A stretch of 64,000 nt of DNA from Eubacteriales bacterium (GTDB taxonomy: Bacteria; Bacillota; Clostridia; Lachnospirales; Lachnospiraceae): positions 111,717 through 175,716 of the forward strand of contig JAUNHC010000004.1 in assembly GCA_030524175.1 (NCBI GenBank), written 5' to 3'. The position numbers and the translations under genes are program-made. Positions 20,709-54,374 of the stretch are shown here, one piece after another. Numbering within the stretch: the stretch's first letter is position 1; the number at the start of each line of letters is the position of its first letter. Under the pieces are notes generated by a model. The model was given only the letters and a program-made list of their open reading frames with translations. It was not told the origin of the DNA and did not search any database.

Positions 20709-20715
20709 GATACCA

Positions 20716-32467: not shown

Positions 32468-32507
32468 GTTCAATAACCTTCCGGGTCCCTTCCCCCTCAT
32501 AAACCCC

Positions 32508-32536: not shown

Positions 32537-32601
32537 AAAAACGTAATAAAACTTTAATAATTGCGGACTAATTGGTAATATTTGGGAATGAGAGGGATAT
32601 A

Positions 32602-34176: not shown

Positions 34177-34212
34177 ACTACGCTTTTATTGAGGGGTAAG
34201 GATAAACACAAA

Positions 34213-35973: not shown

Positions 35974-38106
35974 ATGAAAAAAATAGTGATTATCGGAGCC
36001 AATGATTTCCAGAGACCTTTGATTCAGAAAGCAAAAGAAATGGGGTATGAAACTCATGTGTTTGCCTGGAAAGAGGGGGCCAGCGGAGCTGTTGATGCAG
36101 ATTTCTTCTATGAGATCAGTATTACGGAGAAAGAAAATATTCTTGAACAATGCAGAGAGATCAAGCCGGATGCGGTGGCAACCATTGGTTCAGACCTGGC
36201 TAATGTGACAGTTCAGTATTTGTCTGAAAAACTTGGCCTGCCAGGTAACAGCAGCGACTGCATTTTAAATTCCACTAATAAATATGCCATGCGGTATACC
36301 TTTCAAAATGCTGGTATTCCGGTCCCTTTTTTTCAGTCCGTGGAGACGGGGCAGCGGATTCATCCGCCTAAGTATCCGGTGATCGTGAAGCCCACTGACC
36401 GTTCCGGCAGCAGGGCCATCACCAAAGTGGAATGTCCTGAGGAGCTTAAGGCGGCTGTACACCACGCCATTGCCCAATCCTTTGAGAAGAAGGCGATCGT
36501 GGAGGAGTATATTCCCGGAGAGGAATACAGTGTAGAGACCATCACCTTTGAGGGCAGGCACACCTGCCTTGCCATCACGAAGAAATTCACAACAGGTGAG
36601 CCCCACTATATTGAGGTGGGACATTTGCAGCCGGCACCCCTTACAGATGAACTGGAAGAAAAGGTAAAAGACATTGTGTTTAAAGCACTTGACGCCCTGG
36701 AGGTGCGTTATGGTGCAGGCCACAGCGAGCTGCGCATCGACAGAAAGGGAAATGTTCGTATCATTGAAATCGGTTCCAGGATGGGGGGAGACTGTATCGG
36801 TTCTGATCTTGTTCCTCTGTCCACAGGACAGGATTTTGTGGGAATGGTTATTGATGTGGCAGCAGGTAATCCACCGAGATTTAATGAAAATGCAAGACAG
36901 AAGGTTTCTGCCATACGGTTTGTTATGAATAAAAAGGACCTTCAGCATATGGAATATCTGAAGGAAAATCACCCGTCAGCTATCCGCAGATCAGTTTTGG
37001 AAACACATCCTGACAAAGCTGATATTGTGGACAGCGGAAGTCGCCCTGGTTTCTATATTTTGCAGACAGAAACCATGGAGGAAATGGAAATGCTCCTTCA
37101 CGAAGGCCCTGCCGAGAATCCGGTCCATATTTTCCCAACCCCGGTCCATGAGCTGCGCTGGGGGAGGAATGAGAATTCTTTCTATATGAAAAGAGATGAT
37201 CTTCTGCCCTTTTCTTTCGGAGGAAACAAGGTACGCTTTGCCCGGAAGTTTATTGAGGATATGCAGAAAAAGCATTGCGACAGTATGATCATCTACGGGA
37301 ACTATAATTCCAATCTGTGCAGGATACTTGCAACCTTGTGCAGAGGGCTTAACATGCCCTGTTATATGGTACACAACACAGAGGATATAAAAGAACCGAA
37401 AGAAACTTCCAACAGCAGGATCATCCGGCGTATGGGGGTAAAAGAAATTCCCTGTACAAAGGAGGGCATAGCCGCGGCTGTGAATGATGCCATGGAAGAA
37501 CTGCGTGAGAAAGGGTTCCGTCCATATTATATTTACGGCGATGAAAACGGACAGGGAAACGAGTGGGTGCCCATGCAGGCTTATGTGGAAGCCTATGATG
37601 AAATCTGTGCTTATGAACAGGAGACAGGCATAAAGTTTGACTATATTTTTCTGGCATCCAGCACAAATGCCACCCAGTCAGGGCTTTTGATGGGAAGTCT
37701 GTTAAGAAAGGACAGCCGTAAAATTGTGGGAATCTCTGTGTCCCGTAATGCAGCACGGGGAAGAGAGGTAATATACCGGAATATCAGGGAGTATGAGAGG
37801 AAGTTCTTCAGGGAGAAACCTGAATATATCCGGCTTTCAGAGAAAGAGCTAAATGAAAATATCTATTTTACAGATGCCTGTATGGAAGGGGGATATGGTG
37901 TTTATTCTCCGGAAATCCAAAAGGTCATCCATCAGGTCTATGTCTCTGACGGCGTTTACCTGGATATGACGTATACAGGTAAAGGTTTTTATGGTATGAT
38001 GGAATATCTGAAAGAACGGGAAATCAGCGGGAAAAACATTCTTTTTCTGCATACCGGGGGTGCTCCCCTTTTCTTTGATTTCCTGGAGGAAGAGGGAAAT
38101 AAATGA
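35974..38106 (+). CDS. ATP-grasp ligase fused to a PLP enzyme of the D-cysteine desulfhydrase/ACC deaminase family
   Basis: 710 residues, two enzymes in one chain. Residues 1 to about 330 form a PylC/carbamoyl-phosphate-synthase-like ATP-grasp domain (IVIIGANDFQRP, VIVKPTDRSGSR, EEYIPGEEYSVE, RIIEIGSRMGGD). Residues of about 395-710 are a type II PLP fold: FGGNKVRFARKF carries the expected Lys, ASSTNATQSGL the phosphate contacts, and LHTGGAPLFF the C-terminal loop. ATP-grasp enzymes join a carboxylate to an amine; the PLP family eliminates or exchanges small amino acids such as D-Cys, D-Ser or ACC. A start at 35974 with GAGG upstream fits better than 35944. It overlaps a second ATP-grasp gene by 4 bases. 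The product is not predictable. Confidence 0.85.
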   Translation: MKKIVIIGANDFQRPLIQKAKEMGYETHVFAWKEGASGAVDADFFYEISITEKENILEQCREIKPDAVATIGSDLANVTVQYLSEKLGLPGNSSDCILNSTNKYAMRYTFQNAGIPVPFFQSVETGQRIHPPKYPVIVKPTDRSGSRAITKVECPEELKAAVHHAIAQSFEKKAIVEEYIPGEEYSVETITFEGRHTCLAITKKFTTGEPHYIEVGHLQPAPLTDELEEKVKDIVFKALDALEVRYGAGHSELRIDRKGNVRIIEIGSRMGGDCIGSDLVPLSTGQDFVGMVIDVAAGNPPRFNENARQKVSAIRFVMNKKDLQHMEYLKENHPSAIRRSVLETHPDKADIVDSGSRPGFYILQTETMEEMEMLLHEGPAENPVHIFPTPVHELRWGRNENSFYMKRDDLLPFSFGGNKVRFARKFIEDMQKKHCDSMIIYGNYNSNLCRILATLCRGLNMPCYMVHNTEDIKEPKETSNSRIIRRMGVKEIPCTKEGIAAAVNDAMEELREKGFRPYYIYGDENGQGNEWVPMQAYVEAYDEICAYEQETGIKFDYIFLASSTNATQSGLLMGSLLRKDSRKIVGISVSRNAARGREVIYRNIREYERKFFREKPEYIRLSEKELNENIYFTDACMEGGYGVYSPEIQKVIHQVYVSDGVYLDMTYTGKGFYGMMEYLKEREISGKNILFLHTGGAPLFFDFLEEEGNK

Positions 38107-39290
38107 AGAAATTGATGATTTTAGGAGCCAGCTATTCACAGCTTCCTTTGTATCATGCGGCGCGTAAGCTGGGCATACGCACGGTTGCCGCCAGCACTCC
38201 GGGGGAATGGCCTGGATTTGCCGCGGCAGATGAGAGTTCTTATACTGATATATCAGATCCGGAGGCTGTTCTGGCAGCAGCCAAGGAACATGGCATTGAC
38301 GGGATCACTACCTGCTGTCTGGACACAGGAGTGAAGGCTATAGGGTATGTGTGTGAAAGGCTGGGACTGAAAGGAATTTCGGCCGGTGCAGGTCTGGTGA
38401 GCACAGATAAATACCTGATGAAAGAAGCTTTTCAAAAAGGGGGAGTGCGCTGTGCCCGCCATATCTGTGTCCGCAGTCTTTCTGAGTTGGAAAATGCCCT
38501 GGACAGGCTTTGTTTTCCTGTGATCATCAAAGCGGTGGATCTGATGGGAAGCCGGGGGATTTTCCGCTGTAATACAAAGGAGGAAGCCCGGGAATATTAT
38601 GAGCTGACCATGGCTGCAACAGGAAAGGACTACTGTCTTGCAGAGGAGTTTATTGAAGGACAGATACTTGGCTGCGAGGCTATGATATGTGACGGCGAAC
38701 TGCTGTATTGTCTTCCCAATAATATTGATGCCTACCAGAGCCATGTGCCCACACCTGTAGGGCATTCGGTTCCTTATAAAAAACAGTCTTTATTAGAGGA
38801 GGAGATCCGCAGGCAGGTATCTCTTGCGGTGAAAGCCACAGGGCTTGACAATTGTCCTGTAAACTGTGACTTAATAGAAAAGGATGATCAGATATATGTG
38901 ATTGAGATTACCGGGCGCGCAGGTGCAACCTGTCTCCCGGAGATGGTAAGCTTGTATTTCGGCATTGATTACTATGAGGCTATTGTGCGTCTGGCCCTTG
39001 ATATGCAGCCGGAGATAATGTTTAAAGACAATCCTCCCTGCCGTCCCAACCTGTCAAAAATCCTTACCTCTGACTGTCCGGGAATGGTAAAACATATTGA
39101 AAACACCAATCCTCCGGCAGAGGATATCGTGGATATTTCTTTTAATATTTCACCGGGAGATCAGGTGCGCCGCTATGAAAACGGCAGGGACCGCCTGGGG
39201 CAGATCATTCTTACAGGAGACACTCTGGAAGCTTGCGAAACCCGTCTGGGAGAGGTTTTGTCGAAAATAAGCATTGAAATTGTACCATGA
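38103..39290 (+). CDS. ATP-grasp carboxylate-amine ligase
   Basis: 395 residues with ATP-grasp order: pre-ATP domain (LMILGASYSQLPLYHAARKLG), central FPVIIKAVDLMGSRG and LAEEFIEGQILGCEAM, and metal-binding VIEITGRAGATCLPEM. It resembles the first half of the preceding fusion protein and is coupled to it by an ATGA overlap. Relatives make dipeptides or attach amino acids to amines and amino sugars. Next to a WecE aminotransferase and a lipid-carrier glycosyltransferase, acylation of a 4-amino-sugar with an amino acid is plausible but unproven. Confidence 0.85.
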   Translation: MKKLMILGASYSQLPLYHAARKLGIRTVAASTPGEWPGFAAADESSYTDISDPEAVLAAAKEHGIDGITTCCLDTGVKAIGYVCERLGLKGISAGAGLVSTDKYLMKEAFQKGGVRCARHICVRSLSELENALDRLCFPVIIKAVDLMGSRGIFRCNTKEEAREYYELTMAATGKDYCLAEEFIEGQILGCEAMICDGELLYCLPNNIDAYQSHVPTPVGHSVPYKKQSLLEEEIRRQVSLAVKATGLDNCPVNCDLIEKDDQIYVIEITGRAGATCLPEMVSLYFGIDYYEAIVRLALDMQPEIMFKDNPPCRPNLSKILTSDCPGMVKHIENTNPPAEDIVDISFNISPGDQVRRYENGRDRLGQIILTGDTLEACETRLGEVLSKISIEIVP

Positions 39291-39305
39291 TTGTGAGAAA
39301 ATAAC

Positions 39306-39707
39306 ATGAGAAATCCTATACAAACGAAGAAAAGTGTATATCTGATGCTGCATGTCAGCCTTCTGTTCAGTTCCCTGAGCGGTGTCTGTTCCAAAATGGC
39401 ATCCAGATATACGGATAATATATTTTCCATCCCATTCCTGTTCTGGTTTGGGCTGGTTTTTGTGATTATGTTTGGCTATGCTGTTATCTGGCAGCAGATT
39501 TTAAAGAGACTGCCCCTTACAGTGGCCTATGCCAATAAGCCTGTGACCCTGGTGTGGGGGATCATCTGGGGGAGTATGATTTTCGGTGAGAAAATCACCT
39601 GGAACATGTTTGCAGGAGCTGCCGTCATATTTCTTGGGATTTACCTTGTCACAAGTGACAACACTGTGCAGGACAGTGATCCGGTGAAAGGCGGTGGGCA
39701 GTCATGA
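39306..39707 (+). CDS. SMR/EamA-like four-helix transporter subunit A (ArnE/ArnF-like)
   Basis: 133 residues with four predicted membrane helices and a short polar tail. The third and fourth helices (VTLVWGIIWGSMIFGEK, AAVIFLGIYLV) match the SMR/EamA half-transporter pattern. It overlaps the next, similar small gene by 4 bases, as expected for a heterodimer. In E. coli, ArnE-ArnF flip undecaprenyl-phosphate-aminoarabinose; the ArnC-like glycosyltransferase two genes on makes the same role likely here. Small multidrug export is the alternative. Confidence 0.72.
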   Translation: MRNPIQTKKSVYLMLHVSLLFSSLSGVCSKMASRYTDNIFSIPFLFWFGLVFVIMFGYAVIWQQILKRLPLTVAYANKPVTLVWGIIWGSMIFGEKITWNMFAGAAVIFLGIYLVTSDNTVQDSDPVKGGGQS

Positions 39708-40048
39708 GTAGTCTGGGAACAGCAGTCTGCATCCTTCTGGTATCTGTGTTCATCTCATCAGTGTCGCAGATACTATTGAAAAAAGCAGCAAACAGAAAAT
39801 ATACAAGTCCGCTTAAGGAATATTTGAATCCGCTGGTTATAGGCGCCTATGCCATGTTTTTCGGCTCTGTGATACTGACCATGCTGGCATTGAGATATGT
39901 ACCCCTTTCTATGTCTCCCATCCTGGAGTCCACCGGGTATATCTTTGTGTCTGTGTTGGGATATTTTTTTCTGAAGGAGCGATTCAGCAGAAGAAAGCTT
40001 TTAGGTATTGCACTGATCTTGGTGGGGATAGCCGTTTTTTCCATGTGA
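39704..40048 (+). CDS. SMR/EamA-like four-helix transporter subunit B (ArnE/ArnF-like)
   Basis: 114 residues with four helices, including SVSQILLKKAANR in helix 1, an EamA-type feature, and ESTGYIFVSVLGYFFLKERF with the conserved Glu/Arg-bearing loop. It is the partner of the preceding gene through a 4-base overlap. The likely task is moving a glycosylated polyprenyl phosphate across the membrane. The next gene, a lipid-carrier glycosyltransferase, starts 24 bases later. Confidence 0.72.
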   Translation: MSSLGTAVCILLVSVFISSVSQILLKKAANRKYTSPLKEYLNPLVIGAYAMFFGSVILTMLALRYVPLSMSPILESTGYIFVSVLGYFFLKERFSRRKLLGIALILVGIAVFSM

Positions 40049-40072
40049 TCGGCAGGTAAGGAGACAAAAGAG

Positions 40073-41023
40073 ATGCTGGTATCTATCGTTATACCTTGTT
40101 ACAATTCTGAGCAGACCATCGGGAAGGTGGTTGAGCTTTCGGTAAAGGAATTTGAAAAAACAAAGGATTATGAATGTGAATTTGTCCTTGTCAATGATTT
40201 TTCCCGTGACGGGACCTGGAAGGTGATCGAGGAATTGGCCGCCAGATATCCCAATGTAAAGGGCATCACTCTGGCCAAGAATTTCGGCCAGCATAATGCG
40301 ATCATGGCAGGGCTTCAATATACAGAGGGCGAGTTTATCCTGGGCATGGATGACGATATGCAGAACCATCCTTCCCAGATCCCGCTGTTTCTGGAAAAGA
40401 TGCAGGAGGGATATGATATTGTATTCGGGGTATTTAAACAGCGTAAATTCTCTGTGATAAAAAATATTACAGGTGCTGTAAGCCGTTTCCTTTTGTGGCA
40501 TCTTCTGGAGCGGCCCAAACATATCCAGATGAGCAGCTTCTGGTGCTGCCGTAGATATGTGAGGGACGAGGTTGTAAAGTACGACGGATACAACACCTTC
40601 CTTCAGGTCTTGTTTTTCCGCACCACCCATAATATTGCAAACATTGAGATTGAGCATTATGCAAGGGAGGCGGGACAGTCTAATTATAATTTCCGCAGAG
40701 GCCTGAAGCTGTTCATGTCCTGTCTTAACTTTACTGTCATTCCTTTGCGGGCAGCCACTCTCCTTGGTACACTGTTTTCGGGAGCCGGTTTTATCGGGGC
40801 CTTGGTCGTGCTTATACGTAAGCTTATAAATCCGGCGATCGCCATTGGGTGGTCATCTCTGATGTGTGCCATGCTTGTATTTTTCGGGTTCAGTTTTCTG
40901 ATGCTGGGCATTATAGGGGAGTATATCGGCAAATTGATTTTGAATATCAACAAGACACCCCAGTACGTAATACGCCAGACAGCGAATTTAGATAAAGAGA
41001 AAAAAGAGGAAACAAATGATTGA
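40073..41023 (+). CDS. GT2 undecaprenyl-phosphate glycosyltransferase (ArnC/GtrB-like)
   Basis: 316 residues: a GT2 catalytic domain (VSIVIPCYNSEQTI, DDD metal motif in GMDDDMQNHP, KNFGQHNAIMAGL) and two C-terminal membrane helices (about 230-250 and 262-287). This plan fits ArnC, GtrB and DPM-like enzymes that put one sugar on a polyprenyl phosphate at the cytosolic face. Conserved active-site residues look intact. The gene overlaps the WecE-type aminotransferase by 8 bases, so the sugar moved may be its product, dTDP-4-amino-4,6-dideoxygalactose. Confidence 0.88.
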   Translation: MLVSIVIPCYNSEQTIGKVVELSVKEFEKTKDYECEFVLVNDFSRDGTWKVIEELAARYPNVKGITLAKNFGQHNAIMAGLQYTEGEFILGMDDDMQNHPSQIPLFLEKMQEGYDIVFGVFKQRKFSVIKNITGAVSRFLLWHLLERPKHIQMSSFWCCRRYVRDEVVKYDGYNTFLQVLFFRTTHNIANIEIEHYAREAGQSNYNFRRGLKLFMSCLNFTVIPLRAATLLGTLFSGAGFIGALVVLIRKLINPAIAIGWSSLMCAMLVFFGFSFLMLGIIGEYIGKLILNINKTPQYVIRQTANLDKEKKEETND

Positions 41024-42146
41024 TTTTAACAGACCCGCCTTTGTGGGGCAAGAACTGGAATATATCAAGGATGCAGTACACAGAGGCATGCTGTGCGGAG
41101 ACGGAGAATACACAAAGAAATGTTCTGCCTGGATGCAGGAGCGGTTTCAGGTTAACCATGTGATGCTCACCACTTCCTGTACCCATGCACTGGAGATGGC
41201 AGCCTATCTGGCAGATATCCGGCCGGGGGATGAGGTGATCATGCCGTCTTATACCTTTGTCTCCACAGCCGATGCTTTTGTACTCAGGGGTGCCACAATA
41301 GTCTTTACAGATATCCGCCCTGATACCATGAATATGGACGAGCAGCTCATCGAACAGGCCGTTACATCCAAAACAAAGGCTATTGTACCTGTGCATTATG
41401 CCGGGGTAGCCTGTGAGATGGATTCGATCATGCGTCTGGCAGGTAAATACGGACTGAAGGTGATCGAAGATGCAGCCCAGGGAGTCGATGCTTTCTACAA
41501 GGGAAAAGCATTGGGTACCATAGGAGATTTTGGCTGTTACAGTTTCCATGAGACGAAGAATTATACTATGGGTGAAGGCGGTGCCCTGCTTTTTCAGAAA
41601 GAAGAGTATTTGGAGAAGGCAGAGGTTCTGCGTGAGAAGGGTACGGACAGAAGTAAATTCTTCCGGGGACAGGTAGATAAATACCGCTGGGTGGACTATG
41701 GTTCTTCTTATCTTCCCAGTGAATTGAATGCGGCTTATCTTTTTGCTCAGCTGGAAGCCTGTGATAAGATCAACAAAAAGCGCATGGAGATTTATGAATA
41801 TTACCACAGAAACCTGGCAGTTCTGGCAGAGGAAGGCAGGATAGAGCAGCCCTTTGTGCCCGGGGAGTGTATTCACAATGCACATATGTACTATATCAAG
41901 GTCCGGGATATGGAGGTGCGTACCAGACTGATCGCCTACCTCCGGAAAAAGGGGATCTGCAGTGTATTCCATTATGTTCCCCTGCATTCTGCGCCGGCGG
42001 GAAGAAGGTTCGGCCGCTTCAGCGGAGAAGATGTTTATACCACAAAAGAAAGTGAGCGTCTGCTCAGGCTTCCTATGTTCTACAATCTGGAAATGGAAGA
42101 TGTGAAGCAGATCGTGGACGCAATTGTTGCCTTTGATGAGTTTTAA
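41016..42146 (+). CDS. wecE: dTDP-4-amino-4,6-dideoxygalactose transaminase (WecE/RffA type)
   Basis: 376 residues, a DegT/DnrJ/EryC1/StrS PLP aminotransferase. Several long stretches correspond closely to my memory of E. coli WecE, such as DEVIMPSYTFVSTADAFVLR, VPVHYAGVACEMD, the PLP-Lys motif SFHETKNYT near 177-185, and TTKESERLLRLP. WecE converts dTDP-4-keto-6-deoxyglucose to dTDP-Fuc4N using glutamate. The needed dTDP-glucose 4,6-dehydratase (rfbB) is not in the window. It overlaps the ArnC-like gene, tying the amino sugar to a lipid carrier. Confidence 0.93.
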   Translation: MIDFNRPAFVGQELEYIKDAVHRGMLCGDGEYTKKCSAWMQERFQVNHVMLTTSCTHALEMAAYLADIRPGDEVIMPSYTFVSTADAFVLRGATIVFTDIRPDTMNMDEQLIEQAVTSKTKAIVPVHYAGVACEMDSIMRLAGKYGLKVIEDAAQGVDAFYKGKALGTIGDFGCYSFHETKNYTMGEGGALLFQKEEYLEKAEVLREKGTDRSKFFRGQVDKYRWVDYGSSYLPSELNAAYLFAQLEACDKINKKRMEIYEYYHRNLAVLAEEGRIEQPFVPGECIHNAHMYYIKVRDMEVRTRLIAYLRKKGICSVFHYVPLHSAPAGRRFGRFSGEDVYTTKESERLLRLPMFYNLEMEDVKQIVDAIVAFDEF

Positions 42147-42195: not shown

Positions 42196-43518
42196 ATGAA
42201 AAGATGGAAAAGAATCCTTACAGCCGTACTTACAGGAACTATGACAGCCGCACTGGCGGCAGCGGCTCCCGTATGGGCATCCGTTGATCTGGAGGCCGTG
42301 TATGGGATTTCCACCAATGACATTCAGGGCTGGCCCAAGGGGCCTGAAATTTCCTCTGACACAGGTATCATCATGGAGGCCGAAACCGGGGTGGTGCTCT
42401 ATGACAAGGGCGCCGATGAGCTGCGGTACCCGGCAAGTATCACCAAGCTTATGACACTGCTTGTGGCAGTGGAGAATGTAGGTCTTGATGAGACTGTCAC
42501 TTTCACAGAGACAGGGGTGCGCGATGTGACTCCGGATTCAGGGAATATCGGGATGCAGCTTGGGGAAACCATGAGCATGAGAGACTGTGTGTATGCCATG
42601 ATCATTTATTCTGCCAATGAAGTTGCAGCCCAGATTGCAGAATACGTAGGCGGCACGGAGCAGGATTTTATTGATATGATGAATGAACGTGCGGCAGAGA
42701 TCGGCTGCACAAATACCCATTTTGCCAATGCCAGCGGGCTGCCGGATCCCAACCAGTATACAACTGCCAGGGATATGGCGCTGATTTTCCGGGAGGGATT
42801 GAAGAACAGTACCTTCCGTGAGATCGTGGGAACTCCTACGTATATTATCAAACCCACAAATATGAATAGTTCTGAGCGGAAAATGCACACGCACCATCCG
42901 CTTTTTGCAGAGGAAGCTCCTCTTTACTATGAAGGCTGTATCGGCGGAAAGACAGGAATGACAAATGATGCGGGACATACGCTTGTGACTGGTGTGGAGC
43001 GTGACGGTGTGACGTATATCGCGGTGGTAATGCGGGCGTCAGAGTTAAGTCCTGCATGTCTGGACAGCCGGGCCATGTTTGATTATGCCTATCAGAATTT
43101 CCGGAAAGAGGAGTTTGAGGGCAGCAAGGTCATATTGCCAAATGGAACCAATGCCGATGCCCTTACCTCCAAGGTTGAAAATATTAAGGGCAAGGATATG
43201 GAATGCTTTTATCTTTCTGATCATTTAGTAGGAATGGGAAGCCTGGTCCTCCCGTCACCCACTCCTGAGGTCCAGGATGAGGTGGAGGAAATCGGGGACG
43301 CACAGGACGAGCCTCTCTACCGGGATGCAGAGGAAGAGAAGGACAGTGCTGACAACGGACAGGAAAAAAAAAGCCTTTCTGACACAGCGAAATTACTGTT
43401 TGCAGTGATGGGAGTTATGGCAGCAGTCCTGGTTGTACTGCTCATAGCTCTCAGTGTGAAAAAGCGTAAGCAGAGGAAGTATAAACAGAAAAGAGGACAA
43501 AGACATGGGAAAAATTAA
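42196..43518 (+). CDS. D-alanyl-D-alanine carboxypeptidase (PBP5/DacF family, S11)
   Basis: 440 residues. A signal peptide (about 1-29) is followed by the S11 domain with SxxK (Ser81-ITK84), SAN (139-141) and KTG (252-254). A C-terminal acidic linker leads to a single membrane helix (about 400-422) and a very basic tail, which is an integral rather than amphipathic anchor. It trims the terminal D-Ala of peptidoglycan stems. The N-terminal segment GWPKGPEISSDTGIIME closely resembles that of the - strand paralogue at 56966-58240. It overlaps rfbC by 14 bases. Confidence 0.95.
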   Translation: MKRWKRILTAVLTGTMTAALAAAAPVWASVDLEAVYGISTNDIQGWPKGPEISSDTGIIMEAETGVVLYDKGADELRYPASITKLMTLLVAVENVGLDETVTFTETGVRDVTPDSGNIGMQLGETMSMRDCVYAMIIYSANEVAAQIAEYVGGTEQDFIDMMNERAAEIGCTNTHFANASGLPDPNQYTTARDMALIFREGLKNSTFREIVGTPTYIIKPTNMNSSERKMHTHHPLFAEEAPLYYEGCIGGKTGMTNDAGHTLVTGVERDGVTYIAVVMRASELSPACLDSRAMFDYAYQNFRKEEFEGSKVILPNGTNADALTSKVENIKGKDMECFYLSDHLVGMGSLVLPSPTPEVQDEVEEIGDAQDEPLYRDAEEEKDSADNGQEKKSLSDTAKLLFAVMGVMAAVLVVLLIALSVKKRKQRKYKQKRGQRHGKN

Positions 43519-44059
43519 AGTGACAGAATGCGGGGACATTGAAGGACTGAAGGTGATCGAGCCTGCAGTTTTCGGAGACAGCCGCGGTTACTTCATGGAG
43601 ACTTATAATTTCAATGATTTCAGTGAGGCCGGTATAACTGTGGAGTTTGTCCAGGATAACCAGTCCAGCTCACGCCGGGGAGTGCTCCGGGGACTTCATT
43701 TCCAGATCAACTACCCTCAGGACAAGCTGGTGCGAGTTGTCAGCGGGGAGGTATTTGATGTGGCTGTGGATTTGCGGGAAGGGTCCAAGACCTATGGAAA
43801 ATGGTACGGTGTTGTCCTTTCTGCGGAAAACAAGAAGCAGTTTTTTATTCCAAAGGGCTTTGCCCACGGTTTTCTGGTACTCTCGGAAAATGCTGAGTTT
43901 ACTTACAAATGCTCGGATTTTTATCATCCCAATGATGAGGGCGGGCTTATCTGGAACGATCCGGATATCGGTGTAGAATGGCCTGTTCCTGATGACATGG
44001 AGCTGATTTTTTCTGACAAGGATCAGAAATGGGGCAGCTTCAAGGAGTTCCGGAGATAG
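43505..44059 (+). CDS. rfbC: dTDP-4-dehydrorhamnose 3,5-epimerase
   Basis: 184 residues, cupin-fold epimerase. Motifs: SRGVLRGLHFQ with the catalytic His, KLVRVVSGEVFDVAVDLR, and PKGFAHGFLVLSE. It makes dTDP-4-keto-L-rhamnose, which RfbD (53486) reduces. AGAGGA precedes the ATG, which lies inside the end of the carboxypeptidase gene. rfbA and rfbB are absent from the window. Confidence 0.96.
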   Translation: MGKIKVTECGDIEGLKVIEPAVFGDSRGYFMETYNFNDFSEAGITVEFVQDNQSSSRRGVLRGLHFQINYPQDKLVRVVSGEVFDVAVDLREGSKTYGKWYGVVLSAENKKQFFIPKGFAHGFLVLSENAEFTYKCSDFYHPNDEGGLIWNDPDIGVEWPVPDDMELIFSDKDQKWGSFKEFRR

Positions 44060-44068: not shown

Positions 44069-44884
44069 ATGCTGAAAACGATTTTCTCACTGCCGGCGGA
44101 TTTATATAAAAACCGCCGGTTAGTCTTAAAACTGGCAAAAAATGATTTCAAGACCAGGTATGCCGGTTCCTATATGGGGACTGTCTGGGCTTTTATCCAG
44201 CCGGTGGTCACTATTATGGTGTATTGGTTTGTATTTTCTGTGGGGTTCCGGTCAGGAACCGGGGATCTGGGCGTTCCTTTTGTACTTTATCTTGTGGCCG
44301 GGATCGTGCCCTGGTTCTTTTTTCAGGATGCTCTCATCGGGGGCACTAACGCTCTTATTGAATATAATTACCTTGTAAAAAAAGTCGTCTTCAATATCAG
44401 CGTGCTTCCTGTTGTGAAGATCATATCAGCGCTGTTTGTACACGGCTTTTTCGTGGTGTTTACCATTATTTTATTTACCTGCAACGGGTGGTTCCCGGAT
44501 ATTTATTACCTGCAGATTTTCTATTATACCGGCTGTACGTTTTTACTTGTTCTGGGACTGTGCTATGCAACCTGTGCAGTGGTTGTGTTTTTCAGGGATC
44601 TGACTCAGATCATCAGTATCGGCCTGCAGGTAGGCATTTGGCTTACACCCATCATGTGGATCGCAGAAAATTCTCTGAAGGGTCATGAAATCCTGCAGAA
44701 AATTCTCCAGTTTAACCCCATGTACTATATTGTATCCGGATACAGGGATACCTTTATTATGAAGAACTGGTTCTTCCAGCATCCAGGCTGGACTTTATAT
44801 TTCTGGGTATTTACAATTCTATGCTTCCTGTTCGGCAACTGGGTATTCAGGCGTCTGAGAGTTCATTTCGCAGATGTACTGTAA
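44069..44884 (+). CDS. ABC-2 type polysaccharide export permease (Wzm/TagG-like)
   Basis: 271 residues with six predicted membrane helices and the ABC-2 O-antigen/teichoic acid permease signature (KNDFKTRYAGSYMGTVWAFIQP near the N-terminus, FNPMYYIVSGYRD near the C-terminus). It pairs with the ATPase gene that follows after about 60 bases. It exports a lipid-linked polysaccharide made in the cytosol. Confidence 0.94.
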   Translation: MLKTIFSLPADLYKNRRLVLKLAKNDFKTRYAGSYMGTVWAFIQPVVTIMVYWFVFSVGFRSGTGDLGVPFVLYLVAGIVPWFFFQDALIGGTNALIEYNYLVKKVVFNISVLPVVKIISALFVHGFFVVFTIILFTCNGWFPDIYYLQIFYYTGCTFLLVLGLCYATCAVVVFFRDLTQIISIGLQVGIWLTPIMWIAENSLKGHEILQKILQFNPMYYIVSGYRDTFIMKNWFFQHPGWTLYFWVFTILCFLFGNWVFRRLRVHFADVL

Positions 44885-44943
44885 GCAGCCTGGCCATGAG
44901 AAGGGATCGCATAGATACAAAGGATTTAAAGAAAGGGAACAAC

Positions 44944-46197
44944 GTGGAAAACAAGAAAGTCATTCAGATTGAACATCTGTCTAAAATGTATAAGCTTTAT
45001 GATAAGCCCTCTGACCGTCTCAAGGAATCTCTGGGGCTTACCCGGCAGAAACGTTATCGTGAGCATTATGCTCTTCATGATATAAACTTTGATATAGAGG
45101 AAGGAGAGTGTGTGGGAATCATCGGAACAAATGGTTCCGGAAAATCCACCATACTCAAGATCATCACAGGGGTACTTTCTCCCACAGAGGGGACGGTTAC
45201 TGTGAACGGACGCATCTCTGCCCTATTGGAGCTGGGAGCCGGATTTAATATGGAGTATTCGGGGCTTGAGAATGTGTACCTGAACGGCACCATGATCGGG
45301 TTTTCCAAGGAAGAGATCGACCAGCGCCTTGATGAGATCCTGGCATTTGCCGACATCGGGGATTTTATCCATCAGCCGGTGAAAATGTACTCCAGCGGTA
45401 TGTTTGTGCGTCTTGCTTTCGCTGTTGCGATCAATATTGACCCGGAGATCCTTATTGTGGACGAGGCATTATCCGTAGGCGATGTTTTTTTTCAGGCTAA
45501 ATGTTACCATAAATTTGAGGAATTTAAAAAACAGGGAAAAACCATACTGTTTGTCAGTCATGACCTGAGCAGTATTGCAAAATACTGTGACCGTGTTGTA
45601 CTTTTGAATAAGGGCCAGATGTTGGATCAGGGTTCCCCTAAGGCAATGGTAGATATGTACAAGCAGCTTCTGGTGAATCAGGACCCTGTAAAGCAGGGCG
45701 GGGGAAGCGGGAAGGCAGCGGAAAACTGGAGAGAGGGCTTCCGGGTTAACCCTGATACGCTGGAATACGGAGAGAAGCAGGCCGAGATCATCGATTTTGT
45801 GGTTCTTGATTCTGAGGGCCGTCAGACCAATACCATAGAAAAAGGGACAGTCTTTGAGATAAAAATGCGGGTGCACTTTAACGAAAGCATCCAGCAGCCT
45901 ATTATGGCCTATACCTTTAAAAATATCCAGGGTACGGAGATCACCGGAACAAATACTATGTATGAAGAAGCTGTCGTGGAGCATCCTGACGAAGGCAGGG
46001 AATGTATTGTGACCTTTAAGCAGGAGATGAACCTGCAGGGCGGGGAATATCTGCTCTCCTTCGGCTGTACAGGCTATCGTCAGGGGGATTTCAGTGTGTT
46101 CCACCGGCTCTATGATGCCTGCAACATCACGGTGGTATCAACTAAGAATACGGTTGGATTTTATGATATGAATTCTGAGGTGACTGTGGAAGAATAG
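44944..46197 (+). CDS. ABC polysaccharide export ATPase with Wzt-like C-terminal domain
   Basis: 417 residues from a GTG at 44944, chosen because AAAGGG lies upstream and the next residues begin the ATPase domain; the longer frame from 44821 overlaps the permease by 64 bases. Walker A is GTNGSGKST, signature YSSGMFVRLAFAVAI, Walker B ILIVDEALSVGD. Residues of about 285-417 form a Wzt-type beta-sandwich that in O-antigen exporters binds the non-reducing end of the polymer. This suggests a chain terminator; the methyltransferase just downstream is a candidate for making it. Confidence 0.93.
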   Translation: MENKKVIQIEHLSKMYKLYDKPSDRLKESLGLTRQKRYREHYALHDINFDIEEGECVGIIGTNGSGKSTILKIITGVLSPTEGTVTVNGRISALLELGAGFNMEYSGLENVYLNGTMIGFSKEEIDQRLDEILAFADIGDFIHQPVKMYSSGMFVRLAFAVAINIDPEILIVDEALSVGDVFFQAKCYHKFEEFKKQGKTILFVSHDLSSIAKYCDRVVLLNKGQMLDQGSPKAMVDMYKQLLVNQDPVKQGGGSGKAAENWREGFRVNPDTLEYGEKQAEIIDFVVLDSEGRQTNTIEKGTVFEIKMRVHFNESIQQPIMAYTFKNIQGTEITGTNTMYEEAVVEHPDEGRECIVTFKQEMNLQGGEYLLSFGCTGYRQGDFSVFHRLYDACNITVVSTKNTVGFYDMNSEVTVEE

Positions 46198-48444: not shown

Positions 48445-50949
48445 ATGGATGACCGTATTGTAATCTTAGACAGCTGCCGATATAGTGTGAAAGATAACGG
48501 AACCTGCATCCTGCGGGGGTGGATGTATATGGGAGATGACGAACCCTCTGTTCAGGTGCGGGCAGACCATATACCTCTGGAATGCAGTATGACACGCTGG
48601 GCAAGGCCGGATGTCCTGGCTGCCAGGCCGGAACTTATATTTCCCGATGAAAATGCCGGATTTGAGATACGTATTCCCAACATGGAGCACATTTTCTCTC
48701 TGGCAGAATCCCTGCGGGTGCGTATTTGTTATGACAGAGAGAGCCTTCCTGTGATGCAGAAGGATATGAAGCAGGTAAAGAGTGAGTATTACGGTGATAC
48801 TCTCAATTATTATATGGAATGCGTGGAGCGGAGGCTGGATAATGTCTATATCCAGGGATGGTGCATCAATACTTTTGGGGAATTGAAAATGGCGCTGCTG
48901 GATGAGAAAGGGGCTGACCAGAGGGATGTGCACTGGGGCAGCGTGCGCCGTGGAGATCTCCCCGAGCAGTTTGATGTTTCCCTTTCCCAGTGCCACGGGT
49001 TTATTATTGAGATCCCCAGAGATAAAATTAAAGGGAAACTCCTCCGCCTTACTTTCGCCAATAATGCTGTGACGAAAGAAGAAGTCATCCATATGCGGAA
49101 GTTCGACAGGGAAAACGCCCGTCTGGGCCGGATATTAAAGACGGTAAGCAAGGACAATAAGGAAAAAAATAAAGAAATTATCCGGGAAATGGGAATCCGC
49201 GGTTTTCTGGACTATCTCAGGGAGGAATCAGGCTCCTTCGCAGATAGTTACGGATATTATGAAAAGAAGCACCGGGCAACTGCAAGAGAATTGAAGCAGC
49301 AGGCAAAGGAAAGCTTTTCTCCTGCCCCTCTTTTCAGTATTGTGGTACCTTTATACCATACGCCTCTTAATTTCCTGAAGGAGCTTGTGGATTCCGTGGT
49401 GTCCCAGAGTTATGTCAACTGGCAGCTTTGCCTGGCGGACGGAAGCAAGGATGATTCCCTGGAGAAGTATATCCAGGCCAATTATGGAAAGGATAAGCGC
49501 ATCTGTTATAAGCACCTTCAGGACAATACAGGGATCGCTGGAAATACCAATGCAGCCATTGCCATGGCAAAGGGGGATTATGTAGTCTTTGCAGACCATG
49601 ATGACGCCCTGGCGCCGGAGGCACTGTACTGGGTGGCCCGCACTTTGGCAGATCATCCGGAAACTGAGCTGGTATATTCAGACGAAGACTTGATGGATGA
49701 AAAAGGAAACCGCATATATCCTCATTTTAAACCGGATTTCAATCTTGACTGCCTTCGCTGTATCAATTATATCTGCCATCTCGTCACAGTGAAGAAGAGT
49801 CTTTTGGACAAGGTGGGCGGTCTGCGGAAGGAGCTTGACGGCTCTCAGGATTTTGATTTCCTGCTCAGGTGTGCTGAGAACACGGAGCATATCCGCCATA
49901 TCCCCAGGGTATTGTACCATTGGAGGAGCCACGATGGCTCTACGGCAGGCAACCAGGACAACAAGCAGTATGCCATTGATGCCGGAAAACGGGCTTTGGA
50001 GGAACATTATGCCAGACTTGGGCTTGAGGCAGAGGTGGAATTTGCCGGGATTTTCATTGTGTTCAGGACGAAATTCAAGGTACAGGGAAATCCTATGGTG
50101 TCCATATTAATTCCAAATAAAGACCATACAGAGGATCTGGAGAAATGTATTGTTTCTATTCAGGAGAAGAGTACCTGGAAAAACGTGGAGATCATTGTCA
50201 TTGAGAACAACAGTGAGAATGAGGGTACATTTTTATATTATGAGGAACTGAAAAAGCGTTATCCCAACGTGAAGGTGGTAAACTACCAGGGCGAGTTCAA
50301 TTATTCTGCCATCAACAACTTTGGAGCAGGTTATGCCCAGGGCGAATATCTTCTTCTGCTGAACAATGACACAGAGGTGATCACCCCGGACTGGCTGGAG
50401 CGGATGATAGGGTACTGTCAGAGAGAAGATGTGGCGATCACAGGGGCCAAGCTTTACTACCCGGACAATACCGTGCAGCACGCAGGCGTGGTGGTGGGTA
50501 TGGGAGGCTTTGCCGGACATATTCTCACCGGGTACGGAAAGAATTACGTGGGCTACATGGGAAGGCTGAAAACCGCCCAGGATGTAAGTGCAGTCACAGG
50601 TGCCTGCCTTATGGTGAAACGAAGTATTTTCCAGCAGCTTAAGGGGCTGGACGAAGGCTTCGGGGTGGCACTGAACGATGTGGATTTCTGTCTGCGGGCC
50701 AGGGCGCTGGGGAAGCTGGTGGTATTTATTCCTGACGCAGAACTGTATCATTATGAATCCAAATCAAGGGGCCTTGAGACAACTCCTGAGAAGCAGGAGC
50801 GTTTTAACCGGGAAATCCGCCGTTTTCAGGAGAGATATAAGGAGCTTCTGGAGAAGGGCGACCCTTATTATAATCCGAATCTCAGCCTTGTGCGGGGGGA
50901 CTGCTCACTGCGCAAGGCCCATGAGAATGTGGGAGGACGGAAAGCATGA
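48445..50949 (+). CDS. Large glycosyltransferase with two tandem GT2 domains
   Basis: 834 residues. Residues 1-290 are a non-catalytic region; the first GT2 domain (about 293-520) has FSIVVPLYHTP and the DHDDALAPEA metal motif; the second (about 550-790) has VSILIPNKDHTEDLE and LLLNNDTEVITPDW. The HYESKSRG motif near the end recurs in two neighbouring proteins. Such tandem enzymes, as in rhamnan and O-antigen synthesis, usually add two different linkages. It overlaps the next gene by 4 bases. No membrane helix is evident, so it acts at the cytosolic face. Confidence 0.88.
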   Translation: MDDRIVILDSCRYSVKDNGTCILRGWMYMGDDEPSVQVRADHIPLECSMTRWARPDVLAARPELIFPDENAGFEIRIPNMEHIFSLAESLRVRICYDRESLPVMQKDMKQVKSEYYGDTLNYYMECVERRLDNVYIQGWCINTFGELKMALLDEKGADQRDVHWGSVRRGDLPEQFDVSLSQCHGFIIEIPRDKIKGKLLRLTFANNAVTKEEVIHMRKFDRENARLGRILKTVSKDNKEKNKEIIREMGIRGFLDYLREESGSFADSYGYYEKKHRATARELKQQAKESFSPAPLFSIVVPLYHTPLNFLKELVDSVVSQSYVNWQLCLADGSKDDSLEKYIQANYGKDKRICYKHLQDNTGIAGNTNAAIAMAKGDYVVFADHDDALAPEALYWVARTLADHPETELVYSDEDLMDEKGNRIYPHFKPDFNLDCLRCINYICHLVTVKKSLLDKVGGLRKELDGSQDFDFLLRCAENTEHIRHIPRVLYHWRSHDGSTAGNQDNKQYAIDAGKRALEEHYARLGLEAEVEFAGIFIVFRTKFKVQGNPMVSILIPNKDHTEDLEKCIVSIQEKSTWKNVEIIVIENNSENEGTFLYYEELKKRYPNVKVVNYQGEFNYSAINNFGAGYAQGEYLLLLNNDTEVITPDWLERMIGYCQREDVAITGAKLYYPDNTVQHAGVVVGMGGFAGHILTGYGKNYVGYMGRLKTAQDVSAVTGACLMVKRSIFQQLKGLDEGFGVALNDVDFCLRARALGKLVVFIPDAELYHYESKSRGLETTPEKQERFNREIRRFQERYKELLEKGDPYYNPNLSLVRGDCSLRKAHENVGGRKA

Positions 50950-53393
50950 AACACCAATTGCTGGAGGTAGAAAGAGAACGTTTCTTTCTCAATGACATTT
51001 GTAAATATTCCATACGGGGCGTGATCCCGGAGAAGTATTCCATAGAAGCTTATCTGGATGATACACGGTTGGAGGCCTCTCTTGAGCGCCAGATCGCCAA
51101 AAGCGCTGTGGAAAGGTTCAAGGACGGGGAGATGCTGGGGGGCCAGAGAGTGGAAGCCACAGTGACCCTTCCCAGGGAGCTGGAGGGGTATAAGAAGCTT
51201 AACGTATTTGCTGTCTTTGAGAATAACAGGCTTCCATGGTTTCACATCAAGGTCAAGGAGCTTCTGAAGCGGAGAGGAAGACCACAGTATTATATAGAAG
51301 AAGAGAGGGTGAACCGTAAGGAGCACACTCTTACTCTGCGGGGCTGGGCTGCTGCATCCACCCATGTGCAGATCAAATTGTTTGATGAGAATAAGCAGCC
51401 TTTGGAGGTGCGGGTACAGAGAAACAGCCGTATGGATGTGGCGGATATGTTTAAAGAATTTCCTCTCACAGACGACTGCGGTTTTTATGTGGAGCTGGAT
51501 GAGGTTAAGGGAAAATATCTGTACCTTGTCATGCGGGACAAGGAGGGCAGTAAATCTGTCTATAAGGTGGGAGTAGGCACAGGGGAAGTGTTGCTTGGAA
51601 AAGCCGGGAAATACAGAAAGAAGGGGATGGATTATCTCCGGGCCCACGGTGCAAAGGCACTGATGGTGAAGGCGGTCCGCAAGCTGTCTGAGGTGTCAAA
51701 CCGTCCTGTGGATTATGCCCAGTGGCTGCCAAAGCACCTGCCCACCCCTGCTGAGCTGGAAAAGCAGAGAAAGACAGTATTTAAAATAAATCCCAAAATC
51801 AGCATTGTAGTTCCTCTCTATAAGACAAGAGAGGATTACCTTAGCCAGCTTGTGGATTCTGTAAAAGCCCAGACCTACACAAACTGGGAGCTGTGTCTCT
51901 CTGATGGCAGCGGTGCAGACTCCCCCATCAGAAGTATTCTGGAGAAATATGCTTCTGAGGATGAGCGGATCAAGGTGGTTTTCCATCAGGAGAGTCTGCG
52001 GATCGCAGAGAATACCAACGCGGCAATAGAGATTGCTTCCGGAGATTACATTGCTTTTGCAGACCATGATGATGTGCTTACCGCCCATGCATTGTTCGCC
52101 TGTGTCAAAGCCGTCAATGAAGACCCGGACATTGAAGTTCTCTATTCAGATGAGGATAAAATGTCCATCAAGGGGAATAAGTTTTTCCTGCCCCATTTTA
52201 AGCCGGATTTTAATCTGGACTTGCTTTGTACGGTAAATTATATCTGCCATCTCTTTGTGGCAAAAAAGGAACTGGTGGACAAGGTGGGAATGCTGCGGCC
52301 GGAATTTGACGGCGCCCAGGATTATGATTTTATTTTCCGCTGTGTGGAAGCCACAGAGCATATCTGCCATATTCCTATGATCTTATATCATTGGCGGAGC
52401 CACGAGGATTCCACTGCTGAGAATCCGGAGAGCAAGATGTATGCCTTTGATGCAGGGCAGAGGGCGGTGCAGGCTCATTTTGACCGGATCGGTGTGAAGG
52501 CAGAGGTATATAAAGGAGAATATCTGGGGCTGTACAGGACCAGATATGTGAGAGATCATGATCCTCTGGTATCTATCATCATACCAAACAAGGACCATAT
52601 TGAAGATTTGGAAAGGTGTATTTCTTCCATTGATGAACGTTCCACATATAAGAATTACGAGTACATTATCGTGGAGAATAACAGCACGGAGGAACGGACC
52701 TTTGACTACTATAAAAAGCTGGAGAAAGAGAATCCCAGGGTGCATACTGTGTATTGGGACGGGCCCTTTAATTATTCGGACATCAATAATTTCGGCGCCT
52801 CCTATGCAAAAGGAGAATATTTTCTGCTTTTGAATAATGACACAGAGGTGATCAACAATGACTGGATAGAAGAGCTTCTTGGTTATTGTATGCGGCCTGA
52901 TGTGGGAATCGTGGGAGCCAGACTCTACTATGAGGACGACACAGTACAGCACGCAGGTGTTGTGCTGGGATTCGGCGGTATTGCAGGACATTGCTTTGTT
53001 CAGCAGCCAAGAGGAAATACAGGATACTGCCACAGGATCATCTGCCCGCAGAATTACAGCGCAGTGACAGCTGCCTGCATGATGGTGAAAAAAGAAGCTT
53101 TTGACAAGGCAGGAGGTTTAAGTTCTGATCTGGCAGTGGCATTTAATGATATCGACTTCTGCCTGAAGGTGAGGGCAGCAGGCTATCTTGTTGTATATAA
53201 CCCTTATGCGGAACTGTATCATTATGAATCAAAGTCCAGGGGACTTGAGGATACACCGGAGAAGAGGGAGCGGTTTGCAAAAGAGATTGCAACTCTTGAG
53301 GCACATTGGCCTGATATATTCAGCAAACCCGACCCATATTATAATCCAAACCTGACATTGAAAAGCCAGGACTTTTCTCTGAAACGGCTGTGA
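50946..53393 (+). CDS. Large glycosyltransferase with two tandem GT2 domains
   Basis: 815 residues, same plan as the preceding gene. The N-terminal 280 residues are variable; GT2 domain one (about 283-510) has ISIVVPLYKTRED and ADHDDVLTAHA; domain two (about 538-780) has VSIIIPNKDHIEDLE and LLLNNDTEVINNDW, then HYESKSRGLED. It is clearly a paralogue of its neighbour but divergent in the N-terminal third, so the two probably make different linkages in one repeat unit. GGGAGG precedes the start, which overlaps the previous stop. Confidence 0.88.
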   Translation: MKHQLLEVERERFFLNDICKYSIRGVIPEKYSIEAYLDDTRLEASLERQIAKSAVERFKDGEMLGGQRVEATVTLPRELEGYKKLNVFAVFENNRLPWFHIKVKELLKRRGRPQYYIEEERVNRKEHTLTLRGWAAASTHVQIKLFDENKQPLEVRVQRNSRMDVADMFKEFPLTDDCGFYVELDEVKGKYLYLVMRDKEGSKSVYKVGVGTGEVLLGKAGKYRKKGMDYLRAHGAKALMVKAVRKLSEVSNRPVDYAQWLPKHLPTPAELEKQRKTVFKINPKISIVVPLYKTREDYLSQLVDSVKAQTYTNWELCLSDGSGADSPIRSILEKYASEDERIKVVFHQESLRIAENTNAAIEIASGDYIAFADHDDVLTAHALFACVKAVNEDPDIEVLYSDEDKMSIKGNKFFLPHFKPDFNLDLLCTVNYICHLFVAKKELVDKVGMLRPEFDGAQDYDFIFRCVEATEHICHIPMILYHWRSHEDSTAENPESKMYAFDAGQRAVQAHFDRIGVKAEVYKGEYLGLYRTRYVRDHDPLVSIIIPNKDHIEDLERCISSIDERSTYKNYEYIIVENNSTEERTFDYYKKLEKENPRVHTVYWDGPFNYSDINNFGASYAKGEYFLLLNNDTEVINNDWIEELLGYCMRPDVGIVGARLYYEDDTVQHAGVVLGFGGIAGHCFVQQPRGNTGYCHRIICPQNYSAVTAACMMVKKEAFDKAGGLSSDLAVAFNDIDFCLKVRAAGYLVVYNPYAELYHYESKSRGLEDTPEKRERFAKEIATLEAHWPDIFSKPDPYYNPNLTLKSQDFSLKRL

Positions 53394-53485
53394 TATATAA
53401 GGACGGAGGCGGCAGTCACCGTCAGACACCATGGCTGTGAAGACAGAATTGCCCGGGATATCCGGGCGGAAACGGGAGGTTGCTT

Positions 53486-54328: not shown

Positions 54329-54374
54329 CCGGCAGCAAATTATGGGATTTGATCTGCAGGAAAGGCTGGCTGTT

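What the first reader, a model, noticed from the sequence alone, without database searches (positions are those of the whole stretch)
35974..42146. Candidate lipid-carrier 4-amino-sugar system with amino-acid ligases
Six overlapping or closely spaced genes combine two ATP-grasp ligases (one fused to a PLP amino-acid enzyme), an ArnE/ArnF-like small transporter pair, an ArnC/GtrB-like polyprenyl-phosphate glycosyltransferase and a WecE-type aminotransferase. Seen: gene order, overlaps of 4, 4 and 8 bases, and motifs. Known: ArnC and ArnE/F move 4-amino-arabinose on undecaprenyl phosphate; WecE makes dTDP-Fuc4N; ATP-grasp enzymes form amide bonds. Inference: the cassette builds undecaprenyl-phosphate-Fuc4N, acylates its free amine with a (possibly D- or unusual) amino acid, flips it and uses it to decorate an envelope polymer, perhaps through the YfhO-like protein at 54375. 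This would be a Gram-positive counterpart of Arn lipid A modification combined with D-alanylation-like chemistry.
Basis: partly seen in the sequence, partly recalled or inferred. Interest (0 to 1): 0.78.

Follow-up and report, generated by a model that had tools for sequence, protein, structure and literature searches.

The report
Aminoacyl amino-sugar cassette in Blautia
A six-gene cassette in a gut Blautia genome most likely makes a 4-amino sugar, attaches amino acids to it, and hands it to a lipid carrier that takes it across the membrane to decorate a rhamnose-containing cell-wall polymer; the parts are known, but I found no description of this combination.

Summary
The six genes are real and correctly placed: an ATP-grasp ligase fused to a D-cysteine-desulfhydrase-like PLP domain, a second ATP-grasp ligase, an ArnE/ArnF-like pair, an ArnC/PgfS-like glycosyltransferase (GT2) and a WecE aminotransferase (the only one of the six above a curated functional cut-off). 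Same-genus genomes are Blautia; there the cassette sits between wall-lytic genes and an rml-wzm-wzt cluster. In 80 relatives found with an alignment of the second ligase, 65 have the GT2 within 6 kb, 38 the ArnE/F pair and 39 WecE. In 100 family genomes, 16 of 38 ligase hits outside the own genome lie within 3 kb of a GT2 hit (0.14 expected). YfhO is in 8 of 9 cassette-bearing Blautia genomes and 0 of 7 others (small sample, related genomes). The PLP domain is fused to two ligase clades and keeps its catalytic residues. The parts are separable, and amino acid, order, product and acceptor are not shown. Verdict: reader partly supported; new variant of multi-component Und-P-sugar glycosylation.

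The parts
35974..38106 (+). G1: ATP-grasp ligase (aa 1-~330) fused to PLP fold-II domain (aa ~385-700; ACC deaminase/D-cysteine desulfhydrase superfamily)
   Evidence: Pfam ATP-grasp_4 84 bits, PALP 92 bits; nearest solved structures L-amino acid ligase BL00235 (1e-24) and ACC deaminase/D-cysteine desulfhydrase (1e-26 to 4e-18); catalytic residues kept
38103..39290 (+). G2: second ATP-grasp ligase with LAL_C2 domain
   Evidence: LAL_C2 52 bits; profile of 13 relatives matches 4dim (2e-128) and BL00235/BacD amino acid ligases; AlphaFold model pLDDT 95, pTM 0.91
39306..39707 (+). G3: ArnE-like EamA-type membrane protein
   Evidence: ArnE model 42 bits, cut-off 92
39704..40048 (+). G4: ArnF-like EamA-type membrane protein
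   Evidence: EamA 45 bits; ArnE 30 and ArnF 27.5 bits, both under cut-off
40073..41023 (+). G5: GT2 polyprenyl-phosphate sugar transferase (PgfS/ArnC-like)
   Evidence: PgfS 172 bits and ArnC 159 bits, both under cut-off; ArnC structure 2e-44; two hydrophobic C-terminal segments; Asp93-95 invariant in 26 aligned sequences, window included
41016..42146 (+). G6: WecE, dTDP-4-amino-4,6-dideoxygalactose transaminase
   Evidence: 626 bits against cut-off 375; WecE structures 1e-159
42196..43518 (+). D,D-carboxypeptidase (S11) between cassette and rmlC
   Evidence: found after WecE in 8 of the 11 fetched same-genus loci that cover this stretch (absent in L027, L028, L031)
43505..44059 (+). rmlC
   Evidence: TIGR01221 261 bits, cut-off 156
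44069..46197 (+). wzm and wzt polysaccharide ABC exporter (Wzt with its C-terminal domain)
   Evidence: ABC2_membrane, ABC_tran, Wzt_C
48445..53393 (+). two large double-GT2 glycosyltransferases, presumably of the polymer backbone
53480..54328 (+). rmlD
   Evidence: TIGR01214 330 bits, cut-off 224
54342..56870 (+). YfhO-family GT-C protein, proposed final transferase of the aminoacylated sugar
   Evidence: PF09586 190 bits; presence tracks the cassette in Blautia

Best explanation
A multi-component envelope glycosylation system with a built-in aminoacylation step. RmlA/RmlB (encoded elsewhere in this genome) give dTDP-4-keto-6-deoxyglucose; WecE turns it into a dTDP-4-amino-4,6-dideoxyhexose (dTDP-Fuc4N). 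One or both ATP-grasp ligases join the carboxyl of an amino acid to the sugar's 4-amine (or build a dipeptide on it), taking the place that the acetyltransferase WecD has beside WecE in enterobacterial common antigen (recalled). The PLP domain fused to the first ligase supplies or changes that amino acid (a D- or unusual form is likely). The GT2 then moves the acylated sugar onto undecaprenyl phosphate, the ArnE/ArnF-like pair flips it, and the YfhO protein of the same gene cluster transfers it to the rhamnose-containing polymer made and exported by the neighbouring rml/wzm/wzt/GT genes. Shown by sequence: gene content, families, conserved catalytic residues, recurrent co-localisation. Inferred: substrates, order of steps, amino acid, flipping, acceptor.
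For: WecE above curated cut-off. RmlB just upstream of the cassette and RmlA just downstream of the carboxypeptidase in relatives (rmlB in 11, rmlA in 10 of the Blautia-type loci); the G013 copies are above NCBIfam cut-offs; own-genome homologues on contig C51. Two Lys, one Glu and one Arg of the ATP-grasp site kept in 131 of 131 domains, a second Glu in 130; LAL_C2 and matches to dipeptide ligases. Co-localisation: GT2 in 65, ArnE+F in 38, WecE in 39 of 80 loci; 16 of 38 ligase hits within 3 kb of GT2 outside the own genome, 0.14 expected. PLP domain fused to two ligase clades and solo in others, catalytic residues in 46 of 46 rows (some rows are one genome fetched twice). YfhO 8 of 9 versus 0 of 7. 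Ligase beside WecE without lipid machinery points to the nucleotide sugar as acceptor. Amino-acid-bearing 4-amino-4,6-dideoxyhexoses exist in Gram-negative O antigens (PMC3210612, passages).
Against: No biochemistry; no ligase relative with a proven sugar substrate was found. GT2, ArnE and ArnF fail the curated Arn cut-offs. 13 of 23 ArnE hits in the family are not within 5 kb of a ligase hit, and 22 of 38 ligase hits outside the own genome are not within 3 kb of a GT2 hit. Loci L095-L097 have neither GT2 nor WecE (contig ends near), L072 (contig end) and L099 have none within 6 kb. L061, L067 and L068 have ArnE and WecE but no GT2 over 150 bits. G013 has the cassette but no YfhO; its slot holds another polytopic protein with a marginal PMT_2 match. 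The YfhO correlation is not corrected for relatedness, five of the seven genomes without it are only 81-86% complete, and one of the seven (G015) carries the smaller variant of the cassette. Family-wide, WbqC is not near the ligase (0 of 9). The PLP superfamily is mostly known for breaking down amino acids (recalled).
Confidence: 0.55

Rival explanations
1. Same chemistry, but the acceptor is surface protein, not a polysaccharide: a Pgf-like O-glycosylation system.
For: The best curated model of the GT2 is PgfS (172 bits) and of YfhO PgfM2/PgfM1 (35/29 bits), all far under cut-off.
Against: YfhO sits inside the glycosyltransferase/rml cluster in 7 of 9 Blautia downstream regions fetched, and YfhO proteins are reported as likely transferases to teichoic acids (PMC7389260, passages).
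Confidence: 0.15
2. The ATP-grasp/PLP pair makes a soluble dipeptide or amino-acid metabolite and only shares the operon.
For: Closest characterised ligases by sequence are L-amino acid ligases (BL00235, BacD), which make free dipeptides (recalled); the PLP family acts on free amino acids (for the family).
Against: Ligase and GT2, often with WecE, recur together well beyond chance; none of the six genes is a peptide exporter.
Confidence: 0.12
3. The amino acid is added to the lipid-linked sugar (Und-P-Fuc4N) after the GT2 step.
For: GT2 and ligase are neighbours in most loci (65 of 80).
Against: Ligase relatives next to WecE in clusters without this GT2 or the ArnE/F pair: L083, L093, L094, L101, L111.
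Confidence: 0.2

Closest known systems
Three-component GtrB/GtrA/GT-C glycosylation (CsbB-GtcA-YfhO; GacI-GacK-GacL; Citrobacter pentofuranose system)
   Same: GT2 that loads a polyprenyl phosphate, small membrane flippase candidate, GT-C transferase in the same cluster, polymer exported by an ABC transporter
   Different: Carries an ArnE/F-like pair instead of GtrA/GtcA or Wzx, and its own sugar-amination and amino-acid-ligase genes
Arn (L-Ara4N lipid A) pathway
   Same: 4-amino sugar, ArnC-like GT2, ArnE/F-like pair
   Different: WecE sugar instead of the ArnB one; no formylation gene among the six; a Gram-positive has no lipid A; curated Arn models not met
Enterobacterial common antigen WecE-WecD
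   Same: WecE making dTDP-Fuc4N whose amine is then acylated (recalled)
   Different: ATP-grasp ligases in place of an acetyltransferase; lipid monophosphate donor instead of a lipid pyrophosphate repeat unit (inferred)
L-amino acid ligases (BL00235, BacD)
   Same: ATP-grasp; LAL_C2 domain in gene 2
   Different: genomic context points to a sugar amine as acceptor; one copy fused to a PLP domain
Gram-negative O antigens with aminoacyl-Qui4N
   Same: amino acid in amide link to a 4-amino-4,6-dideoxyhexose (PMC3210612, passages)
   Different: there a component of LPS polysaccharide; here predicted as a post-assembly decoration in a Gram-positive

Membership tests
WecE (dTDP-4-amino-4,6-dideoxygalactose transaminase) | curated model above cut-off | tested here: met
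   NF008687 626 bits, cut-off 375; TIGR02379 615.5, cut-off 435
Arn pathway | ArnB-type UDP-Ara4O aminotransferase | tested here: not met
   NF008658 202 bits, cut-off 631
Arn pathway | ArnC, ArnE, ArnF curated models | tested here: not met
   159/529, 42/92, 27.5/99 bits/cut-off
Arn pathway | ArnA formyltransferase and ArnD deformylase | not tested
   not among the six genes; whole genome not searched for them
Multi-component Und-P-sugar glycosylation | GT2 with C-terminal membrane segments, ArnC/GtrB-like | tested here: met
Multi-component Und-P-sugar glycosylation | small membrane flippase candidate (GtrA, Wzx or ArnE-like) | tested here: met
   EamA pair, nearest ArnE; transport activity not testable
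Multi-component Und-P-sugar glycosylation | GT-C transferase in the same locus | tested here: met
   YfhO PF09586, 12 kb downstream in the same cluster; tracks the cassette
Multi-component Und-P-sugar glycosylation | lipid-linked donor and decorated polymer demonstrated | not testable with these tools
   needs mass spectrometry/NMR
L-amino acid ligase (ATP-grasp, LAL_C2) | LAL_C2 domain and intact ATP-grasp residues | tested here: met
   G2 52 bits, cut-off 29; residues 131 of 131. G1 has the ATP-grasp but no LAL_C2 hit
L-amino acid ligase (ATP-grasp, LAL_C2) | makes free dipeptides | not testable with these tools
   context argues for a sugar acceptor
ACC deaminase | active-site Glu295 (role recalled) | tested here: not met
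   Thr in 42, Val 3, Ser 1 of 46 rows; curated model 120 bits, cut-off 392
D-cysteine desulfhydrase | curated models above cut-off | tested here: not met
   137 bits, cut-off 289 for the family model TIGR01275
Dlt D-alanylation | DltA/DltC carrier-based activation | tested here: not met
   no such domain in the six genes; whole genome not searched

The most novel reading that the evidence does not exclude
The fused PLP domain makes a D- or non-protein amino acid on the spot and the two ligases build a short peptide on the 4-amino sugar, so that Lachnospiraceae carry a peptide-like, exchangeable decoration on their rhamnose wall polymer, varied from species to species by swapping ligases, PLP domain and caps (WbqC-like, PaaK-like, hexapeptide acyltransferase genes); the choline-binding-type repeats of the neighbouring wall hydrolases could read it.
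Probability: 0.2. Interest if true: 0.85.

Novelty: new variant of a known kind. Interest (0 to 1): 0.6.

Why it matters
Blautia and other Lachnospiraceae are major human gut bacteria whose wall polymers are little known. A charged, amino-acid-bearing sugar on the wall would bear on host recognition, antimicrobial-peptide and phage sensitivity, and autolysin docking. It also predicts a function for a widespread set of ATP-grasp proteins, including the solved structure 4dim (deposited as 'phosphoribosylglycinamide synthetase'), and for an orphan branch of D-cysteine-desulfhydrase-like PLP domains.

Tried and rejected
T-box or riboswitch to reveal the amino acid: none near the cassette in the window or in 14 relative loci at gathering thresholds. 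Fixed order of the ligases (G2 first): dropped, because loci L151-L154 have a G1-type ligase and no G2, and the 80-locus set was seeded with G2. WbqC as a general partner: within 1 kb of the ligase in 6 of 80 loci, but 0 of 9 WbqC hits in 100 family genomes lie on the contig of a ligase hit. ACC deaminase identity of the PLP domain: rejected, Glu replaced by Thr. Fold comparison of the G2 model and a model of G1: tools switched off. Literature: 10 answered text searches (one search listed nothing) showed, in the listings, no description of an ATP-grasp/ArnE-F/WecE cassette; for several searches only the top 15-20 of many papers were listed, and the library lacks most subscription journals. Six papers were seen as passages only; none was read whole.
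Full report
WHAT IS THERE. Gene 1 (710 aa) is an ATP-grasp domain followed by a fold-II PLP domain. Gene 2 (395 aa) is an ATP-grasp with the L-amino-acid-ligase domain LAL_C2; its AlphaFold model is confident (pLDDT 95, pTM 0.91). Genes 3 and 4 are short EamA proteins nearest to ArnE (42 bits for gene 3, cut-off 92). Gene 5 is a GT2 closest to PgfS and ArnC, both under cut-off, and to ArnC structures (2e-44). Gene 6 is the only one of the six above a curated functional cut-off: WecE, 626 bits against 375, and WecE structures at 1e-159.

WHERE IT IS. There the cassette lies between cdaA-ybbR-YkuD protein-GH25-amidase (not all of these in every genome) and carboxypeptidase-(rmlA)-rmlC-wzm-wzt. 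All six genes are seen in G013, G009, G005, G020 and G011; in G007 they are split over two contigs, and in G012 gene 1, gene 2 and part of gene 3 are seen before a contig end, with WecE at the start of another contig. RmlB is upstream in 11 and RmlA downstream in 10 of the named Blautia-type loci; the G013 copies are above NCBIfam cut-offs. In the window's own genome homologues (57% and 63% identical) lie together on another contig. Thus dTDP-4-keto-6-deoxyglucose, the WecE substrate (recalled), is expected in the cell.

VARIANTS. G001 and G022 have gene 1 without the PLP domain. G002 has one ligase of the gene-2 kind fused to the PLP domain (L031). G024 and G015 have a free-standing PLP protein, one ligase, GT2 and ArnE/F, G024 with WecE. 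G017 has ArnE/F at 35-37% and WecE at 77% identity in the same place, with a distant ATP-grasp and a distant GT2 on the opposite strand between them. G004 has WecE 0.5 kb from a distant ATP-grasp.

WIDER SURVEY. A scan of genome contigs with an alignment of gene 2 gave 366 pattern matches, 250 relatives, of which the best 80 were kept. Within 6 kb of the best ligase (iterated profile search; GT2 counted at 150 bits or more, WecE and YfhO at 300) the GT2 was found in 65 of 80, ArnE and ArnF in 38, WecE in 39, the PLP domain in 35, YfhO in 18 and another ATP-grasp in 34; with 6 kb of sequence on both sides (47 loci) GT2 39, ArnE+F 27, WecE 30. The 15 loci without GT2 are L053, L061, L067, L068, L072, L073, L083, L093-L097, L099, L101 and L111; seven of them (L053, L067, L072, L073, L095, L096, L097) have a contig end within 6 kb. 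L061, L067 and L068 still have ArnE and WecE. L083, L093, L094, L101 and L111 (a Synergistes MAG, Anaerococcus hydrogenalis, three Paenibacillus) keep WecE but have neither this GT2 nor ArnE/F nearby. L072, L095-L097 and L099 have none of GT2, ArnE and WecE within 6 kb. The WecE-only group favours the view that the ligase works on the nucleotide sugar and does not need the lipid carrier.

FAMILY SAMPLE. In 100 family genomes, one per genus and own included, ArnE relatives (E 1e-10) were found in 23, ligase relatives (E 1e-40) in 31 genomes (40 hits), GT2 relatives (E 1e-60) in 69. Outside the own genome 16 of 38 ligase hits lie within 3 kb of a GT2 hit; 0.14 would be expected from density. ArnE lies within 5 kb of a ligase hit in 10 of 23 genomes, own included; of the 27 GT2 hits of 350 bits or more, 13 lie within 3 kb of a ligase hit. 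Of the 20 ArnE places that I fetched (of 23), ArnF was next to ArnE in 20, WecE (over 500 bits) nearby in 10 and an ATP-grasp in 8, one of them weak. So the units are strongly associated but separable; ArnE/F with GT2 also serves elsewhere.

LIGASES AND PLP DOMAIN. ATP-grasp domains (131) fall mainly into two clades, that of gene 2 and that of gene 1. Lys103, Lys143, Glu181 and Arg272 (gene-2 numbering) are kept in 131 of 131 and Glu268 in 130. The PLP domain is fused to the gene-1 clade (Blautia, L062, L064, L065) or to the gene-2 clade (for example L058, L063, L066-L068, L071, L082), and solo in L032, L033, L092. Fusion to two different ligases suggests that its product or substrate belongs to the ligase reaction. 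Lys51, Ser78, Asn79, Tyr268 and Tyr294 (ACC deaminase numbering, recalled) are kept in 46 of 46 rows; Glu295 of ACC deaminase is Thr in 42, Val in 3, Ser in 1; the D-cysteine desulfhydrase row 7ysk has Ser there. The 46 rows include more distant solo copies outside the cassette (L034, L035, L037, L039), and several genomes appear twice, once through a G handle and once through a named record (for example L021 and L080), so they are not 46 independent genomes; a few such repeats are among the 131 as well. I infer an active enzyme on a D- or small amino acid, not an ACC deaminase.

ACCEPTOR. YfhO of the window's kind (E 1e-30) is in 8 of 9 cassette-bearing genomes of the genus, variants included (own, G001, G002, G005, G007, G009, G011, G012; not G013), and in 0 of 7 others in the same call (G003, G004, G006, G008, G010, G014, G015) (Fisher p 0.0014, not corrected for relatedness). 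G015 has the smaller variant of the cassette; counted with the bearers the figures are 8 of 10 and 0 of 6. Five of the seven are only 81-86% complete. In nine downstream regions fetched, seven have YfhO after the backbone glycosyltransferases (G005, G020, G011, G001, G009, G002, G024), and two (G013, G017) have a 477-480 aa polytopic protein there; the G013 one gives a marginal PMT_2 match (26.4 bits, cut-off 26.1), the G017 one none of note. YfhO proteins are the likely transferases of GlcNAc from C55-P to LTA or WTA (PMC7389260, passages), and rhamnan polymers of streptococci and lactococci are proposed to receive side chains in the same way (PMC10821137 and PMC8035078, passages). An ArnE-like small transporter is proposed as flippase in a three-component system of Citrobacter, without direct proof of flipping (PMC11127046, passages).

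WHAT IT IS LIKE. Amino-acid-bearing 4-amino-4,6-dideoxyglucose is known from Gram-negative polysaccharides: N-acetyl-D-alanyl, N-acetylglycyl and hydroxybutyryl-L-alanyl forms (PMC3210612, passages). From the searches made I know of no enzyme assignment of the ATP-grasp type for these. The Gram-positive review PMC8035078 has no occurrence of ATP-grasp, EamA or amino sugar. I therefore call the system a new variant of multi-component Und-P-sugar glycosylation, which works like Arn in its lipid part but is not a member of the Arn pathway.

LIMITS. No substrate, product or acceptor is shown. The stereochemistry of the sugar (Fuc4N) rests on the WecE model. The count data depend on sequence thresholds and on one seed protein. 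The G1 structure could not be predicted and folds could not be compared.

Noticed in passing
window 29221-35718: Three wall enzymes in a row upstream of the cassette: an L,D-transpeptidase (YkuD), a GH25 lysozyme and an amidase; the last two carry choline-binding-type repeats. Their repeats might bind the decorated polymer.
   Followed up: partly
L104:5601-6896, L109:10160-11515 and 16 other loci: A PaaK/CapK-like adenylate-forming enzyme (no Pfam hit for the two tested; NCBIfam PaaK models under cut-off for the one tested) is in 18 of 80 loci, in most of them within 250 bases of an ATP-grasp.
   Followed up: partly
L058, L076, L079, L085, L087, L089: WbqC-family gene within 1 kb of the ligase in 6 of 80 loci (PF08889 confirmed for L058, L076, L079, L085); recalled (no call) that WbqC-type proteins were suggested as glycine transferases in E. 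coli O antigens.
   Followed up: partly
L092: An 801 aa protein with two ATP-grasp domains in tandem, plus a third ligase, a solo PLP protein and two GT2 genes in one locus.
   Followed up: no
L034:3296-4237 and L035:9573-10502: Solo members of the same PLP branch inside other polysaccharide-type clusters of two genomes of the genus, beside sugar transferases.
   Followed up: no
window 20708-20860: Clostridiales-1 RNA, 135 bits, just before an MreB-family gene.
   Followed up: no
L040:11793-11878: NiCo riboswitch before a cation-efflux gene that sits inside the cassette region of G017.
   Followed up: no
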